Origin: Fidelibacterota bacterium
GTDB taxonomy: Bacteria > Marinisomatota > Marinisomatia > Marinisomatales > TCS55
NCBI GenBank assembly: GCA_002717765.1
Contig: PBCB01000016.1
Span: forward strand, 44,060 to 52,713
DNA length: 8,654 nt
Direction of reading: 5' to 3'
Under the pieces are notes generated by a model, which saw only the letters and a list, made by a program, of their open reading frames with translations, made no database searches and was not told the DNA's origin. Positions 4,438-8,654 of this stretch are shown one piece after another. A program made the translations under genes and the position numbers. Position 1 is the first letter of the stretch; the number at the start of each line of letters is the position of its first letter.

Positions 4438-5295
4438 ATGCACGAATCTCAATCTGAAGAAAAATCAATTCTCAAGGTAGTTATTCATAGTTTTTTTGTT
4501 GTCCCATTGGTTATTGCAATTTTTGCTGTAATAATTTTTTTGGTGATTCGAATAATGACTACTGAGCCAAACTCTGCTCGAGACTATCTTGAGGATGTAA
4601 AAATTGGCGGCACGACCAAAAGATGGCAAGGGGCTTTTGAGCTTTCAAAAATGCTATCAAATCCTAAAATGATACCCAAAGATGATCTTTTTGCTAATGA
4701 ATTGATTGCAACTTTTGAATATTCATCTAATGATAGAGATGAGCGAATTCGCCAGTATCTAGCAATTGCTATGGGAGCAACTAAAGATGAACGCTATGTA
4801 CCAACTTTGATTGATGCGATACAAAGCTCTGATATAGGCGTTGTTCAGGCGTGCGCTTTTGCATTAGGAAATATTGGAAGCACTGAAGCCATTGAGCCAT
4901 TAACCGAGCTGCTTGATGAGCCAGATCCGCAAGTTCGCCTTCATAGCGTTATAGCTCTTGGTAAGATTGGCGGGCAAACTGTTGTTCCTTATCTTAAAAA
5001 GATGTTAACAGATATCGAACCCAATGTTAGGTGGGATGCAGCTATAGGATTGGCCAAGCAAAAAGATTCAACCGCAAGAACGATTTTATTAGACCTCTTA
5101 GATAGAAAGTATTTAAATTCATTTCCCAATATAGATGAAAAAGAAAAAGTACAGGTTATCTTGGTTGTAATTAGTGTTTCACATTTTATTCAAAATCAGG
5201 AACTTAAATCTAAATTAGAATTTCTTAAGAATGAGGATTCAAACTTAAAAATTAGAGAAGCTGCTAGAATAGCGCTTGAGAAATATATTATCTAA
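4438..5295 (+). CDS. Membrane-anchored HEAT-repeat protein, first gene of the bc-complex operon
   Basis: This 285-residue protein has one strongly hydrophobic N-terminal segment (about residues 16-38, VIHSFFVVPLVIAIFAVIIF onward) followed by a soluble alpha-helical repeat domain. At least four HEAT/PBS-lyase-like units are visible: around 102-128 (DERIRQYLAIAMG), 133-163 (VVQACAFALGNIGSTEAIEP), 165-194 (QVRLHSVIALGKIGG) and 196-222 (NVRWDAAIGLAKQ), with a last helix pair near 270-284. No catalytic motif or CxxCH haem site is present, so it is probably a protein-binding scaffold. The ATG at 4438 is chosen because an in-frame TGA lies at 4426-4428 and the start leads straight into the membrane anchor. 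No Shine-Dalgarno sequence is seen. It sits 12 bases before the Rieske gene, which suggests a role in assembly, stability or partner docking of the bc complex. That role is inferred from position only. Confidence 0.88.
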   Translation: MHESQSEEKSILKVVIHSFFVVPLVIAIFAVIIFLVIRIMTTEPNSARDYLEDVKIGGTTKRWQGAFELSKMLSNPKMIPKDDLFANELIATFEYSSNDRDERIRQYLAIAMGATKDERYVPTLIDAIQSSDIGVVQACAFALGNIGSTEAIEPLTELLDEPDPQVRLHSVIALGKIGGQTVVPYLKKMLTDIEPNVRWDAAIGLAKQKDSTARTILLDLLDRKYLNSFPNIDEKEKVQVILVVISVSHFIQNQELKSKLEFLKNEDSNLKIREAARIALEKYII

Positions 5296-5307
5296 GTGTT
5301 TACATAG

Positions 5308-5880
5308 ATGTCAGAAAAATCAAACAAAAAAACTTCGACAATAAGCCCAAAGTCTCCACCACCTGCAGCATTGAATAAGGTTGAAAATGAATCTAGTGTA
5401 GATCGCCGTACATTTTTTTCCTGGCTTTCTTTGGGTTGGATTGCATTTGTCGCTGCCACCGGCGGGTTTTTTACTATGATGCTTAGATTCTTTTTTCCTA
5501 ATGTCCTTTTTGAGCCAGTCCAAACATTTAGAGCTGGATACCCTGATGATTATACGGTTGGTGAAGTTGATCTTAGATGGAAAGAAAAATATGGAGTTTG
5601 GATGGTAAGAAATGATGAAGGAATTTATGTATTATCAACCACTTGTACTCATTTGGGTTGTACTCCAAATTGGCAACCTTCTGCAAGAAAATTTAAATGC
5701 CCCTGCCATGGAAGTGGTTTTCGTGTTACTGGTATTCATTTTGAAGGTCCGGCACCAAGGCCTTTAGAAAGATTTAAGATAACTCTTGCAGATGATGGGC
5801 AAATTATTGTTGATAAGACGCAAAAATATCAACAGGAAAAAGGTCAATGGAATGATCCAGAATCATTTTTGAAGGTATAA
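5308..5880 (+). CDS. Rieske [2Fe-2S] iron-sulfur subunit of a cytochrome bc-type complex
   Basis: The 190-residue protein is the high-potential iron-sulfur subunit that takes the first electron from quinol at the Qo site and passes it to a c-type cytochrome. Box I is CTHLGC at 113-118 and box II is CPCHGSG at 131-137. Cys113, His115, Cys131 and His134 should bind the cluster, and Cys118 and Cys133 should form the stabilising disulfide. GPAPRPLERF (147-156) is the family's proline-loop region. The N-terminus has a twin-arginine-like signal, DRRTFFSWLSL at 32-42, leading into a single membrane helix (about 38-60), as in other Tat-exported Rieske proteins that keep their anchor. A short charged tail (170-190) follows the Rieske fold. 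An in-frame TAG at 5305-5307 fixes the ATG. Only one base separates its stop from the cytochrome b start. It is equivalent to qcrA/petC. Confidence 0.96.
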   Translation: MSEKSNKKTSTISPKSPPPAALNKVENESSVDRRTFFSWLSLGWIAFVAATGGFFTMMLRFFFPNVLFEPVQTFRAGYPDDYTVGEVDLRWKEKYGVWMVRNDEGIYVLSTTCTHLGCTPNWQPSARKFKCPCHGSGFRVTGIHFEGPAPRPLERFKITLADDGQIIVDKTQKYQQEKGQWNDPESFLKV

Positions 5881-5881
5881 T

Positions 5882-6670
5882 ATGTCTGATAAGAAAAATA
5901 TATTTGAAAGAATAGCACAAGGGCAAATTTGGAAATCTATATTCCGTGGAGGAGGTACGCCAAAAACCAGACGTCAGCGAATGATGATTGTGCTAAACTC
6001 TGTATTTCTTCATTTGCACCCCGTTCGACTACCTAAGCATGCTGTTAAACTCAAATTCACTTGGTGCATGGGAGGGTTATCATTTTTTATTTTTCTAATT
6101 TTGACAATCTCTGGAATACTTTTGATGTTCTATTATAGGCCCACTATTGAATACGCATATACTGATATTATGGATTTGACTGAACAGGTTCCATTTGGAA
6201 TAATGCGAGAAATTCATAGATGGGGTGCGCATGCTATGGTAATCACTGTGTGGTTGCATATGTTTAGAGTATTTATGACAGGATCATACAAACCGCCAAG
6301 GGAATTCAATTGGGCGGTTGGTGTCATTCTCCTTGTTTTGACATTACTATTAAGTTTTACCGGATACTTACTTCCTTGGGATCAATTAGCAATATGGGCT
6401 ATTGCAGTTGGCTCAAATATGGCAGGAGCAACCCCTTTTCTAGGAGCAGAAGGTCCAGGATCATCATTGCTTGCTATTGGAGATATCAATTTTATTACAA
6501 AGGCAAGTGATGCAAGGTTTGGATTGATTGGCGGTAGATTTTTAGGTGAAGCAACGCTGTTAAGATTTTATGTTCTTCATTGCATAGGTCTACCATTTAT
6601 TATTATGATATTCATGGCTGTTCATTTTTGGAGAATACGTAAAGACGGGGGTATCTCTACTCCAGTTTAA
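5882..6670 (+). CDS. Cytochrome b N-terminal subunit (cytochrome b6-like), haem b carrier
   Basis: This 262-residue membrane protein corresponds to cytochrome b6 or the N-terminal half of cytochrome b, which carries the two b haems that move electrons across the membrane between the Qo and Qi sites. Four helices are seen at about 61-85, 107-134, 143-164 and 230-252. Haem ligands are His112 and His126 (HRWGAHAM and LHMFRVF) and His233 and His248. The last pair is 15 residues apart, as in b6, rather than 14 as in mitochondrial cytochrome b. TGYLLPWDQ at 160-168 is the conserved helix C end. Cys62 in KFTWCMGGLS aligns with Cys35 of b6, which attaches haem c_i. The C-terminus, IRKDGGISTPV, matches the b6 ending. 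Compared with b6, about 20 extra residues lie near 188-212. GAAGG at 5871-5875, six bases before the ATG, is the best ribosome binding site in the operon. Confidence 0.96.
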   Translation: MSDKKNIFERIAQGQIWKSIFRGGGTPKTRRQRMMIVLNSVFLHLHPVRLPKHAVKLKFTWCMGGLSFFIFLILTISGILLMFYYRPTIEYAYTDIMDLTEQVPFGIMREIHRWGAHAMVITVWLHMFRVFMTGSYKPPREFNWAVGVILLVLTLLLSFTGYLLPWDQLAIWAIAVGSNMAGATPFLGAEGPGSSLLAIGDINFITKASDARFGLIGGRFLGEATLLRFYVLHCIGLPFIIMIFMAVHFWRIRKDGGISTPV

Positions 6671-6675
6671 ATGCT

Positions 6676-7794
6676 ATGGAAGGTTTTAAGTCATTAATCA
6701 ATTATATTTCTAATCCTACTATACTGGTTACTGCGGTTATTGTAGGATTCCCTTTTGTTTTTCCACCTTCAAATTGGTTTTATAGGATCCACAAAAAACT
6801 TGGGCTAGATAAGCTATGGACGATGAAAGGTTTAATTGTAATGACATCAGTTACAATTGCCTTTTTTATATTTGGACTTGGTGATGATAATTTTAAGAAA
6901 ATTGTTTTAAAACCTGATAATGTTCCAATATCGGGCCTTATTATTTTATTGATATTTTTTACTTGGCTAAGTATGCATCAAGCTTATAAAAATGATAAGC
7001 TTATTGATCAAGGAAAACCTGTTGATGAGCATTATGAAGCTCCTAATGACAAGGTACTTGTTTGGCCAGATTTAGTATATGTAGAGCTTATCTCATTGAT
7101 TTTATTTTCTGCATTCATGTTGATTTGGTCAATTGGACTACCAGCTCCATTAGAACAGCCAGCCAATCCATCCGAATCTCCAAACCCAGCAAAAGCTCCT
7201 TGGTATTTTTTAGGCCTTCAGGAAATGCTTGTATATTTTGACCCATGGTATGCAGGTGTCGTTTTACCTACATTTATTATTATTGGTTTAATGGCAATCC
7301 CCTATATTGATTCTGATCCAAATGGCTCGGGCTATTTTAGTTACAAAAATAGAATGCTTTCTGTTTCGATCTATCTTTTTGGATGGCTTGTATTGTGGAA
7401 TGTTTTAATCGTTATTGGTACGTTTTTAAGAGGTCCGAATTGGGGATTTTTTGGCCCATTTGAGTACTGGGACCCCCATAGACTTGAGGCTCTAACCAAT
7501 GTTAATCTATCCGAACTTTTTTATGTTAAATGGCTTAATACTGGTCTACCATCTAATATTTTACTGAGAGAAGCGCCAGGCCTATTTATAGTATTTATTA
7601 TTTTTGCTGTTTTACCTCCTTTGCTTGCAAAGACACTATTAAAAAGTTTTTACGATAGGCTAGGTAGCGCCAGATATACTATTTTTGTAGTGTTGATGCT
7701 TTTTGGTGCATTACTCCCTGTAAAAATGTATCTTCGCTGGTTCTTTAACCTAAAATATATTATTTCGATGCCTGAGTTCTTTTTCAATTTTTAA
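6676..7794 (+). CDS. Cytochrome b C-terminal subunit (subunit IV-like), enlarged
   Basis: This 372-residue membrane protein contains the C-terminal cytochrome b region that completes the Qo site. Residues 125-210 align with subunit IV of b6f: the conserved WPDLVYVELI helix (about 131-152), EQPANPSESPNPAKAPWYF, then a helix at 190-210. The Qo signature PEWY is replaced by APWY (174-177). Eight hydrophobic segments are visible: about 14-32, 50-67, 84-100, 131-152, 190-210, 228-249, 299-320 and 333-352. Subunit IV has only three helices in about 160 residues, so this protein has an N-terminal extension of about 120 residues with up to three helices, plus extra C-terminal helices. The segment LRGPNWGFFGPFEYWD (251-266) forms a loop after the helix at 228-249. 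No bis-histidine haem pair is present, as expected for this half. It starts five bases after the b6-like gene with no evident Shine-Dalgarno sequence. Confidence 0.93.
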   Translation: MEGFKSLINYISNPTILVTAVIVGFPFVFPPSNWFYRIHKKLGLDKLWTMKGLIVMTSVTIAFFIFGLGDDNFKKIVLKPDNVPISGLIILLIFFTWLSMHQAYKNDKLIDQGKPVDEHYEAPNDKVLVWPDLVYVELISLILFSAFMLIWSIGLPAPLEQPANPSESPNPAKAPWYFLGLQEMLVYFDPWYAGVVLPTFIIIGLMAIPYIDSDPNGSGYFSYKNRMLSVSIYLFGWLVLWNVLIVIGTFLRGPNWGFFGPFEYWDPHRLEALTNVNLSELFYVKWLNTGLPSNILLREAPGLFIVFIIFAVLPPLLAKTLLKSFYDRLGSARYTIFVVLMLFGALLPVKMYLRWFFNLKYIISMPEFFFNF

Positions 7795-7805
7795 TTTATT
7801 GATAT

Positions 7806-8654
7806 ATGCCGATTAACCAAGAAGAAAGATATTATAATGTATTGAAACTCAATAAGTGGTTTGCTATATCTAGCTTACTGTTTACCGCTTTTTGGATTAT
7901 TACATTTGCAGATGACTATAATCGACCATGGAAAAAGTATCAGTATGAATTTAGAAAATTGGAGATTGAAAATGTTAAGCAGAAGCTGACTAATCAAGAA
8001 TTAATTCTTTCTGAAAATTCTGACTATCAAAATCTATTAAGTGAATTAGAAAAAAGACAAACTGAATTAGTAAATCAATCTGATAAGGTTGAAAGAATTC
8101 AAGCGCAAATCAATGATTTGGATGCTACTCTTTATCAGTCAAATCAAGATTATCAATTTGCTAAGGCAGACTTCGATGCTGCAAAATATACTTTAGAAGA
8201 ATCTCAATTCGGGCACGGTGATCTTGAAAAAGCAAAAAAGAATTACAATAGACTTAAGAAAAAAACAGATGCCGCATTTTTAATTGCTGAAAAAAATCAG
8301 TCCTTGGTTGATAGTCTTGATCAAGAATTGAAAGTAATCAATTCATTCATTAAACAAACGAATGACGCGCTATATGCCATAGGTAGTGAAAAACAATTAT
8401 TAGAAAGACAGTTGTCAAAATTAGATCCTGAAGCTATGACTTTTGCCAATAAAATAGCCAATATCGTTCGAGATGTTCCCGTTATAGACTTTATTGACCC
8501 CTACTATGAAGTAAAGCAGACAGTGGTAAATGACCTTGAGGATGATCTTGTATATATGGGCATGCCTAAAGTAGATAGATGCATAACTTGTCATGTGGGT
8601 ATTGATAAAAAAGGATTTGAAGATGCACCACAACCATACACCACCCACCCAAGG
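7806..8654 (+). CDS. Membrane-anchored coiled-coil cytochrome c, partial (3' end beyond window)
   Basis: An open frame of 283 codons runs to the window edge without a stop, so the gene is truncated here by the window and not by mutation. The product has a membrane anchor at about 18-34 (WFAISSLLFTAFWIITFADD region), then a long charged helical segment with heptad-like spacing at about 45-207 that looks like a coiled coil. After a conserved-looking stretch (VPVIDFIDPYYEVKQTVV, 224-241) comes a c-type haem motif, CITCH at 259-263, and the last residues are YTTHPR. More haem motifs are likely beyond the window but cannot be seen. The ATG at 7806 follows an in-frame TGA at 7800-7802 and lies 11 bases after the cytochrome b stop. 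By position it should take the role of cytochrome c1 or f, accepting electrons from the Rieske protein in the periplasm. I recall related proteins beside split cytochrome b genes in Planctomycetes-like bacteria, unverified. Confidence 0.9.
   Translation, partial: MPINQEERYYNVLKLNKWFAISSLLFTAFWIITFADDYNRPWKKYQYEFRKLEIENVKQKLTNQELILSENSDYQNLLSELEKRQTELVNQSDKVERIQAQINDLDATLYQSNQDYQFAKADFDAAKYTLEESQFGHGDLEKAKKNYNRLKKKTDAAFLIAEKNQSLVDSLDQELKVINSFIKQTNDALYAIGSEKQLLERQLSKLDPEAMTFANKIANIVRDVPVIDFIDPYYEVKQTVVNDLEDDLVYMGMPKVDRCITCHVGIDKKGFEDAPQPYTTHPR

What the first reader, a model, noticed from the sequence alone, without database searches (positions are those of the whole stretch)
6065..6067. Cytochrome b subunit has the cysteine that attaches haem c_i (c_n)
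Seen: Cys62 lies in FTWCMGGLS just before helix A, followed by FYYRPT. Known: in b6f, Cys35 in the near-identical context IFYCLGGIT covalently binds haem c_n at the Qi site, and Firmicutes QcrB has YCFGGL. Inference: this FCB-like bacterium makes a bc complex with a third haem at the quinone-reducing site, outside the phototrophs and Firmicutes where this haem was characterised. The b6-like C-terminal IRKxGIS motif, near the haem site in b6, is also kept.
Basis: partly seen in the sequence, partly recalled or inferred. Interest (0 to 1): 0.72.

Follow-up and report, generated by a model that had tools for sequence, protein, structure and literature searches.

The report
Third-haem cysteine in Marinimicrobia cytochrome b
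A Marinimicrobia-like marine bacterium makes a respiratory cytochrome b with the same cysteine that plants, cyanobacteria and Bacillus use to hold an extra haem at the quinone-reducing site, so it very probably holds that haem too; it is a new member of a known kind, but some relatives lack the cysteine, which offers a natural test of what the haem bond is for.

Summary
TGC 6065-6067 is Cys62 of a 262-aa b6-like cytochrome b and aligns with b6 Cys35. It is kept in 118 of the 120 best protein hits and in 80 of 80 fetched genome loci, labelled as nine phyla. The host is Neomarinimicrobiota-like: three MAG loci are 97-98% identical. The operon is HEAT - Rieske - cytochrome b - subunit IV - octahaem cytochrome c. 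Subunit IV has Glu137 at the PetD Phe40 position, the haem c_i ligand site. I put a covalent haem c_i at 0.85.

The priority claim is weaker. Anammox complexes with c_N haems were modelled in 2025 (PMC12954380), and anammox-type cytochromes b with this Cys are the sister clade (support 90/80).

Nineteen loci of the wider family have Gly, Arg or Tyr there, yet 15 of them keep the Glu; gain against repeated loss is unresolved. CCB2/4 was found in 0 of 14 carrier genomes, and YggT (the CCB3 family) in none of four near genomes, so how the haem is attached is open.

The parts
4438..5295 (+). HEAT-repeat protein with an N-terminal hydrophobic segment (read from the sequence), first gene of the operon (285 aa)
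   Evidence: Pfam HEAT_2 E 7e-27; an ORF of similar size lies in the same place in L001, L002, L016 and L017
5308..5880 (+). Rieske [2Fe-2S] protein (190 aa); cluster motifs CTHLGC 5644-5661 and CPCHGSGF 5698-5721 (Ser/Phe pair as described for anammox Kustd1480)
   Evidence: Pfam Rieske E 7e-9; motif coordinates; Ser/Phe pair described in PMC12954380
5882..6670 (+). b6-like cytochrome b (262 aa) with all four haem-b histidines
6065..6067 (+). Cys62, predicted single thioether attachment site of haem c_i (= b6 Cys35)
6638..6640 (+). Arg253, aligned with b6 Arg207 (role near the haem c_n propionates is recalled, not from a call)
   Evidence: invariant in the 69-row alignment with Bacillus-type QcrB
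6676..7794 (+). Subunit IV-like protein (372 aa; PetD is 160 aa); Qo motif APWY at 7195-7206
   Evidence: PF00032 E 1e-5; PetD E 3e-5; hhalign probability 96.4, E 1e-9
7084..7086 (+). Glu137 of subunit IV, aligned with PetD Phe40; candidate axial ligand of haem c_i
   Evidence: in 80 of 80 loci, but also in 15 of 19 Cys-less loci of the wider family
7806..8654 (+). N-terminal part of the octahaem cytochrome c (cut by the window end), coiled-coil-like; first CxxCH (CITCH) at 8580-8594
   Evidence: ORF open at the window end; full relative in L001 is 1014 aa with 8 CxxCH; 66 of 80 loci have an ORF with 8 CxxCH here that ends inside the locus

Best explanation
The window encodes a Rieske/cytochrome b6-type quinol:cytochrome c oxidoreductase of a Neomarinimicrobiota-like bacterium whose cytochrome b binds a third haem (c_i, also called c_n) at the quinone-reducing (Qi) site. 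The haem is held by one thioether bond to Cys62 next to haem b_N, with Glu137 of subunit IV as likely axial ligand. Electrons from quinol oxidised at Qo split: one goes to the Rieske protein and then the octahaem cytochrome c, the other through haems b_P and b_N to haem c_i and a quinone at Qi. Shown here: residue positions, conservation, operon and kinship. Inferred: covalent haem, Glu ligation and electron route. The quinone species is unknown.
For: Cys62 pairs with the b6 Cys35 position in all five b6 alignments shown, with no gap near it. The Cys is kept in 118 of 120 proteins and 80 of 80 genome loci labelled as nine phyla, in a context shared with Bacillus-type QcrB (YC.GG in 120 of 120). 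Glu137 of subunit IV sits at the PetD Phe40 position by HMMER and by profile-profile alignment, the position whose glutamate is said to ligate haem c_N (PMC12954380). Haem-b histidines, Rieske ligands and Arg253 are intact. The nearest published kin, anammox-type complexes, branch as sister clade and are modelled with c_N haems (PMC12954380). The fold matches b6 best among solved structures.
Against: No spectroscopy, haem stain or structure of this protein was seen. Nineteen loci of the wider family have Gly, Arg or Tyr instead of Cys, yet 15 of them keep the Glu, so the Glu does not prove a haem. No CCB1 or CCB2/4 over cut-off, and no YggT in four of the five nearest genomes, although Firmicutes are not known to need CCB (recalled). 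The AF2 model is weakest just before the Cys (residues 44-61, pLDDT about 40), and its first aligned residue is offset by one from the sequence alignment.
Confidence: 0.85

Rival explanations
1. Cys62 is not haem-bound. It is a structural or redox-silent residue in a normal two-haem cytochrome b, and its resemblance to b6 Cys35 comes from shared ancestry of the helix A entrance.
For: The site is labile: 19 fetched loci of the wider family (L170-L180, L190-L192, L195-L197, L206, L220) have Gly, Arg or Tyr there. No known attachment factor CCB1 or CCB2/4 is found over cut-off.
Against: Within the Cys clade the residue is nearly invariant, the Glu ligand position is filled, and the lineages named as having this haem (b6f, Firmicutes; PMC5526843) have this cysteine.
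Confidence: 0.1
2. The haem site is used, but as an electron exit rather than for quinone reduction: as proposed for anammox, electrons pass from the b_N/c_N haems to a cytoplasmic NAD(P) oxidoreductase.
For: The anammox complexes, which have both a c_N haem (modelled) and an NAD(P) oxidoreductase, are the nearest published kin (PMC12954380). Relatives L176 and L191 encode a PRK12771/GltD-like NAD(P) oxidoreductase next to the Rieske gene.
Against: The window operon and its relatives L001 and L002 have a HEAT protein before the Rieske gene; no ORF of that oxidoreductase kind was seen among their + strand ORFs, judged by reading, without a family search of the flanks. A partner encoded elsewhere is not excluded.
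Confidence: 0.08
3. The complex binds a haem at Qi without needing the thioether bond: Glu137 is the main anchor, and the Cys only stabilises a site that is haem-bearing in Cys-less relatives too. (Compatible with the best explanation for the window itself.)
For: Glu137 persists in 15 of the 19 Cys-less loci (exceptions L177, L178 Ile and L190, L191 Gly).
Against: No structure of a Cys-less member was seen; the Glu could serve proton transfer to quinone instead. The placement of L192 is uncertain (long branch).
Confidence: 0.25

Closest known systems
Anammox Rieske/cytochrome b complexes Kustd1480-1485 and Kuste4569-4574 of Kuenenia stuttgartiensis (PMC12954380)
   Same: b6-like cytochrome b with separate subunit IV-like protein, Rieske with Ser/Phe pair as in Kustd1480, large multihaem cytochrome c with long helices, Glu at the c_N ligand position; anammox-type rows form the sister clade
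   Different: No NAD(P) oxidoreductase seen in the window operon; HEAT protein instead; Neomarinimicrobiota-like host.
Cytochrome b6f complex (PetB/PetD) of cyanobacteria and plastids
   Same: Cys35/Cys62, four haem-b histidines, split cytochrome b and subunit IV
   Different: No cytochrome f in the operon; octahaem c instead; Glu instead of Phe40; Qo motif APWY instead of PEWY; no CCB1 or CCB2/4 over cut-off in carrier genomes; the family's Cys rows and b6 as one clade are rejected
Bacillus-type menaquinol:cytochrome c reductase QcrABC
   Same: Cys in YCFGGL, split cytochrome b
   Different: QcrC is fused to a c-type cytochrome in Bacillus (PMC3475470, passages); 39-43% identity; separate branch
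NCBIfam ExtP/ExtQ (selenite/tellurite operon cytochrome b and membrane protein)
   Same: Best NCBIfam hits for cytochrome b (270.6 bits) and subunit IV (54.9 bits)
   Different: Both below the curated cut-offs (290 and 150 bits), so not a member by that test

Membership tests
Rieske/cytochrome b6-type complex with haem c_i | Single cysteine at the b6 Cys35 position before helix A | tested here: met
Rieske/cytochrome b6-type complex with haem c_i | Two bis-histidine haem b sites in helices B and D | tested here: met
   H112, H126, H233, H248 at the b6 His86, 100, 187, 202 positions (b6 ligand numbers recalled)
Rieske/cytochrome b6-type complex with haem c_i | Split cytochrome b: b6 part and separate subunit IV | tested here: met
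   ORFs 5882-6670 and 6676-7794
Rieske/cytochrome b6-type complex with haem c_i | Residue able to ligate or contact haem c_i in subunit IV (Phe40 or Glu) | tested here: met
   Glu137; not discriminating, as 15 of 19 Cys-less loci keep it
Rieske/cytochrome b6-type complex with haem c_i | Haem covalently bound to cytochrome b on the negative side | not testable with these tools
   needs haem stain, spectroscopy or structure
Rieske/cytochrome b6-type complex with haem c_i | CCB (System IV) attachment factors in the genome (known for oxygenic phototrophs; not a defining feature for the Bacillus type, recalled) | tested here: inconclusive
   PF11152 0 of 14; PF12046 over cut-off 0 of 19 (one match below it, in G011); PF02325 7 of 14 genomes; MAG completeness is not given and the window's own genome is not held
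Anammox-type NAD(P)H-forming Rieske/cytochrome b complex | b6-like cytochrome b in one clade with anammox-type proteins | tested here: met
   window clade (24 rows, 100/98) and anammox-type clade (13 rows, 99/98) are sisters at 90/80, moderate support
Anammox-type NAD(P)H-forming Rieske/cytochrome b complex | Large multihaem cytochrome c subunit in the operon | tested here: met
   octahaem ORF in L001 and most relatives; cut off in the window
Anammox-type NAD(P)H-forming Rieske/cytochrome b complex | NAD(P) oxidoreductase subunit encoded in the operon | tested here: not met
   no such ORF seen beside the operon on the + strand in the window, L001 or L002 (read by eye)
NCBIfam NF040969 ExtP | Score over curated cut-off (290 bits) | tested here: not met
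   270.6 bits

The most novel reading that the evidence does not exclude
Haem c_i did not arise once. The attaching cysteine was acquired independently in the ancestor of the anammox-type and Neomarinimicrobiota/Omnitrophota/Acidobacteriota-type complexes, apart from b6f and Bacillus, in a family whose Qi site already had the glutamate ligand. It is attached there without CCB factors, either by itself or by an unknown route. Cys-less sisters in the same family would then carry the same haem non-covalently, or none.
Probability: 0.35. Interest if true: 0.68.

Novelty: new member of a known kind. Interest (0 to 1): 0.42.

Why it matters
Haem c_i sits at the quinone-reducing site and its purpose is still debated (recalled). 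If the prediction holds, it is not a speciality of photosynthesis, Firmicutes and anammox but a common feature of an octahaem Rieske/cytochrome b complex found in bins labelled as nine phyla, marine Neomarinimicrobiota foremost. The wider family holds Cys and Gly/Tyr members with related operons, which gives natural with-and-without pairs for asking what the covalent bond does. The lack of CCB factors in the genomes searched makes the attachment route an open and testable question.

Tried and rejected
1) Glu137 as an independent, coupled marker for the haem: rejected as diagnostic, because 15 of the 19 Cys-less loci keep it.

2) A single origin of all Cys rows: the AU test rejects holding b6, QcrB and this family's Cys rows as one clade (p 8.98e-07 with 81 rows; p 0.0008 with 77 rows before anammox-type rows were added). 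In both, L186 was left out and P0119 put in. Within the family alone one clade of Cys rows is not rejected (p 0.144). These groups were named after seeing the first tree, and the b6 rows are hand-copied pieces, two of them N-terminal only.

3) Convergent gain as proven: not claimed. Two-state ancestral estimates with rates fitted on the whole tree favour a Cys-less family ancestor (P(Cys) 0.006-0.011). With rates refitted per scenario, a Cys ancestor with losses only is just about 2 log units worse than a Cys-less one for the family (-14.51 against -12.47) and for the wider set (-20.61 against -18.77). My first 'loss-only' figure had a wrong root prior and is discarded.

4) Structure: the first AF2 job with 17 close rows gave pLDDT 47.7 and was not used. 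The second gave 65.9 and serves only for fold level.

5) Menaquinone as the substrate: not shown. MqnA/D and menD were not found in the genomes of L001, L002, L003 and L005.

6) The hydrazine synthase search in the 'phylum of G011' found nothing in 384 genomes. That group is probably Omnitrophota despite the record title, so it says nothing about anammox. On 33 genomes picked from the G012 group it rang in 24. One of those, G776, has 23 HZS_alpha matches and is not counted as anammox; its one read locus (L196) has Tyr, so with it the Cys count in positive genomes is 18 of 19.

7) Literature: nine searches. In the listings shown (a part of the hits) I saw no paper on haem c_i in Marinimicrobia; the one search that required Marinimicrobia, Rieske and cytochrome b gave one paper, on Caldithrix. 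A key paper on the evolution of these complexes (Dibrova 2013) is not held, so priority is not established.

Full report
What is there. The window carries SecA, a cystathionine gamma-synthase-like gene and then an operon on the + strand: HEAT protein (4438-5295), Rieske protein (5308-5880), b6-like cytochrome b (5882-6670), subunit IV-like protein (6676-7794) and the start of a large cytochrome c cut by the window end (7806-8654) (the SecA and cystathionine names are read from the sequence, no family search was run). Codon 6065-6067 is TGC, Cys62 of the cytochrome b. No whole genome is held for the window. Three Neomarinimicrobiota MAG loci are 97-98% identical in cytochrome b (L001-L003), and in L001 and L002, whose + strand ORFs were listed, the same gene order with a SecA-like ORF is present. 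The host is therefore Neomarinimicrobiota-like.

Is it more than chance? Cys62 is present in 118 of the 120 best protein hits; the exceptions are Gly (P0119) and one Thr. In 80 of 80 genome loci the Cys, Glu137 and the Qo motif APWY are all present (a further 23 loci of that count are overlapping pieces of the same or like places in genomes already counted, and three rows that are other cytochromes b, L081, L094 and L104, lack the Cys). By their labels the 80 loci fall in Fidelibacterota (50; Neomarinimicrobiota in the record titles), Omnitrophota (12), Acidobacteriota (6), Planctomycetota (3), Poribacteria (2), Spirochaetota (2), one each in Hydrogenedentota, Verrucomicrobiota and Pseudomonadota, and two unassigned. 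Bin labels may be wrong in places. The scan kept the best 80 of at least 560 relatives. Operon form: Rieske just upstream in 73 of 80 (four of the other seven have under 700 bases held upstream), subunit IV just downstream in 79 of 80, and an ORF with 8 CxxCH that ends inside the locus in 66 of 80; of the other 14, ten are cut or without such an ORF and four have fewer motifs.

Relatives without the cysteine. In a search of 61 genomes of the phylum of L001's genome, 24 had a match, and 29 new loci were read: 9 have the Cys and 20 do not (one of these read by eye). More telling are 19 loci of the same wider family, with subunit IV-like partners or fused subunit IV and mostly related multihaem cytochromes: L170 (63% identical), L171-L175, L176-L180, L190-L192, L195-L197, L206 and L220. 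They have Gly, Arg or Tyr. Fifteen keep Glu137; L177 and L178 have Ile, L190 and L191 have Gly. So Cys and Glu are not strictly coupled.

Anammox kin. In 392 genomes of the phylum of G012, 235 have a match to the L191 cytochrome b, and the 30 loci given were read: 25 have the Cys, 3 Tyr, 2 Gly. Of 33 of these genomes tested, 24 carry the hydrazine synthase alpha domain, which I take as the mark of anammox. Of the 19 read loci in positive genomes, 18 have the Cys; the other, L196, has Tyr and lies in G776, which has 23 copies of the domain and is unlikely to be anammox. On an 81-row tree with the Cys column removed, the window's clade (24 rows, 100/98) is sister to an anammox-type Cys clade (13 rows, 99/98) at 90/80. 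Gly/Arg/Tyr rows lie below, with one more Cys pair (L198, L199) among them, and b6 and Bacillus QcrB lie elsewhere. The tree used a hand-picked subset: 16 rows of the first 77 were dropped and 20 added.

Gain or loss? All Cys rows as one clade (L186 left out, P0119 added) are rejected. Within the family, one clade of Cys rows is not rejected (p 0.144). Parsimony needs six changes. Likelihood estimates depend on how rates are fitted: a strongly Cys-less ancestor, but only about two log units between the scenarios. I conclude that the Cys has switched several times and leave the direction open.

Attachment and maturation. CCB2/CCB4 was found in 0 of 14 carrier genomes, and CCB1 over cut-off in 0 of 19 (five of them from the anammox-type group; one match below cut-off, in G011). 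Both rang in the Synechococcus control. The YggT family (to which CCB3 belongs, recalled) is in 7 of 14 but in none of the genomes of L001, L002, L003 and L005; that of L004, also near, was not searched. The CcmF/CcmC-type family PF01578 is in 18 of 18, fitting the octahaem cytochrome. Completeness of these MAGs is not given, so single absences are weak; four of four is suggestive.

How it most likely works. Shown: gene set, ligands, conservation, kinship. Inferred: a Q-cycle in which the low-potential electron reaches haem c_i via b_P and b_N and reduces a quinone at Qi, while the other electron leaves through the Rieske protein and the octahaem cytochrome. The anammox proposal of electron exit to NAD(P) (PMC12954380) is less likely here because no NAD(P) oxidoreductase gene was seen beside the operon (read by eye, + strand). 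The quinone is unknown: neither the futalosine enzyme family nor menD was found in the four near genomes.

Comparison and verdict. Split b6-type complexes in non-phototrophs are also known in print, for example in Nitrospina (PMC3578206, passages). This is a new member of a known kind, with a wider spread than the papers I saw describe. The unexpected part is that the cysteine comes and goes inside one wider family while the glutamate mostly stays.

Noticed in passing
L176 502-8000; L177-L180; L190-L191 (genomes G171, G216, G179, G134, G122, G013, G020): A PRK12771/GltD-like NAD(P) oxidoreductase (family search in L176 and L191 only; ORFs of like size in others) beside a Rieske/cytochrome b complex, an anammox-like arrangement in groups not known to be anammox; in L176 a NarG-like ORF follows (under the family cut-off, ORF cut by the locus end), and L179 and L180 share its motif. 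All carry Gly or Tyr instead of the haem c_i cysteine.
   Followed up: partly
genomes of L001, L002, L003, L005: Neither MqnA/D (PF02621) nor menD (TIGR00173) was found in these four near Neomarinimicrobiota genomes, so the quinone used by this complex is unknown.
   Followed up: partly
window 7195-7206: Qo motif is APWY, lacking the glutamate of the PEWY motif; constant in the 80 loci and in the relatives aligned, Cys-less ones included, except L192 with APWI.
   Followed up: no
L186 2875-3921: A bc-type cytochrome b of another subfamily has WWFCLGGTPA with Cys at the same position, while its nearest rows (L107, L108, L117) have Ala: possibly a separate gain.
   Followed up: partly
P0119: A close relative (75% identical) with TWGMGG: Gly in place of the Cys inside the Cys clade, a recent natural loss or a sequence error.
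   Followed up: partly
window 7806-8654; L001 8927-11971: The octahaem cytochrome has a long N-terminal part that weakly matches SMC-like models, recalling the long helices reported for Kustd1485.
   Followed up: no
L016 / G011: Record title says Planctomycetales, but the cytochrome b (81-82% identical) and the small genomes of its group fit Omnitrophota; probably a mislabelled bin.
   Followed up: no
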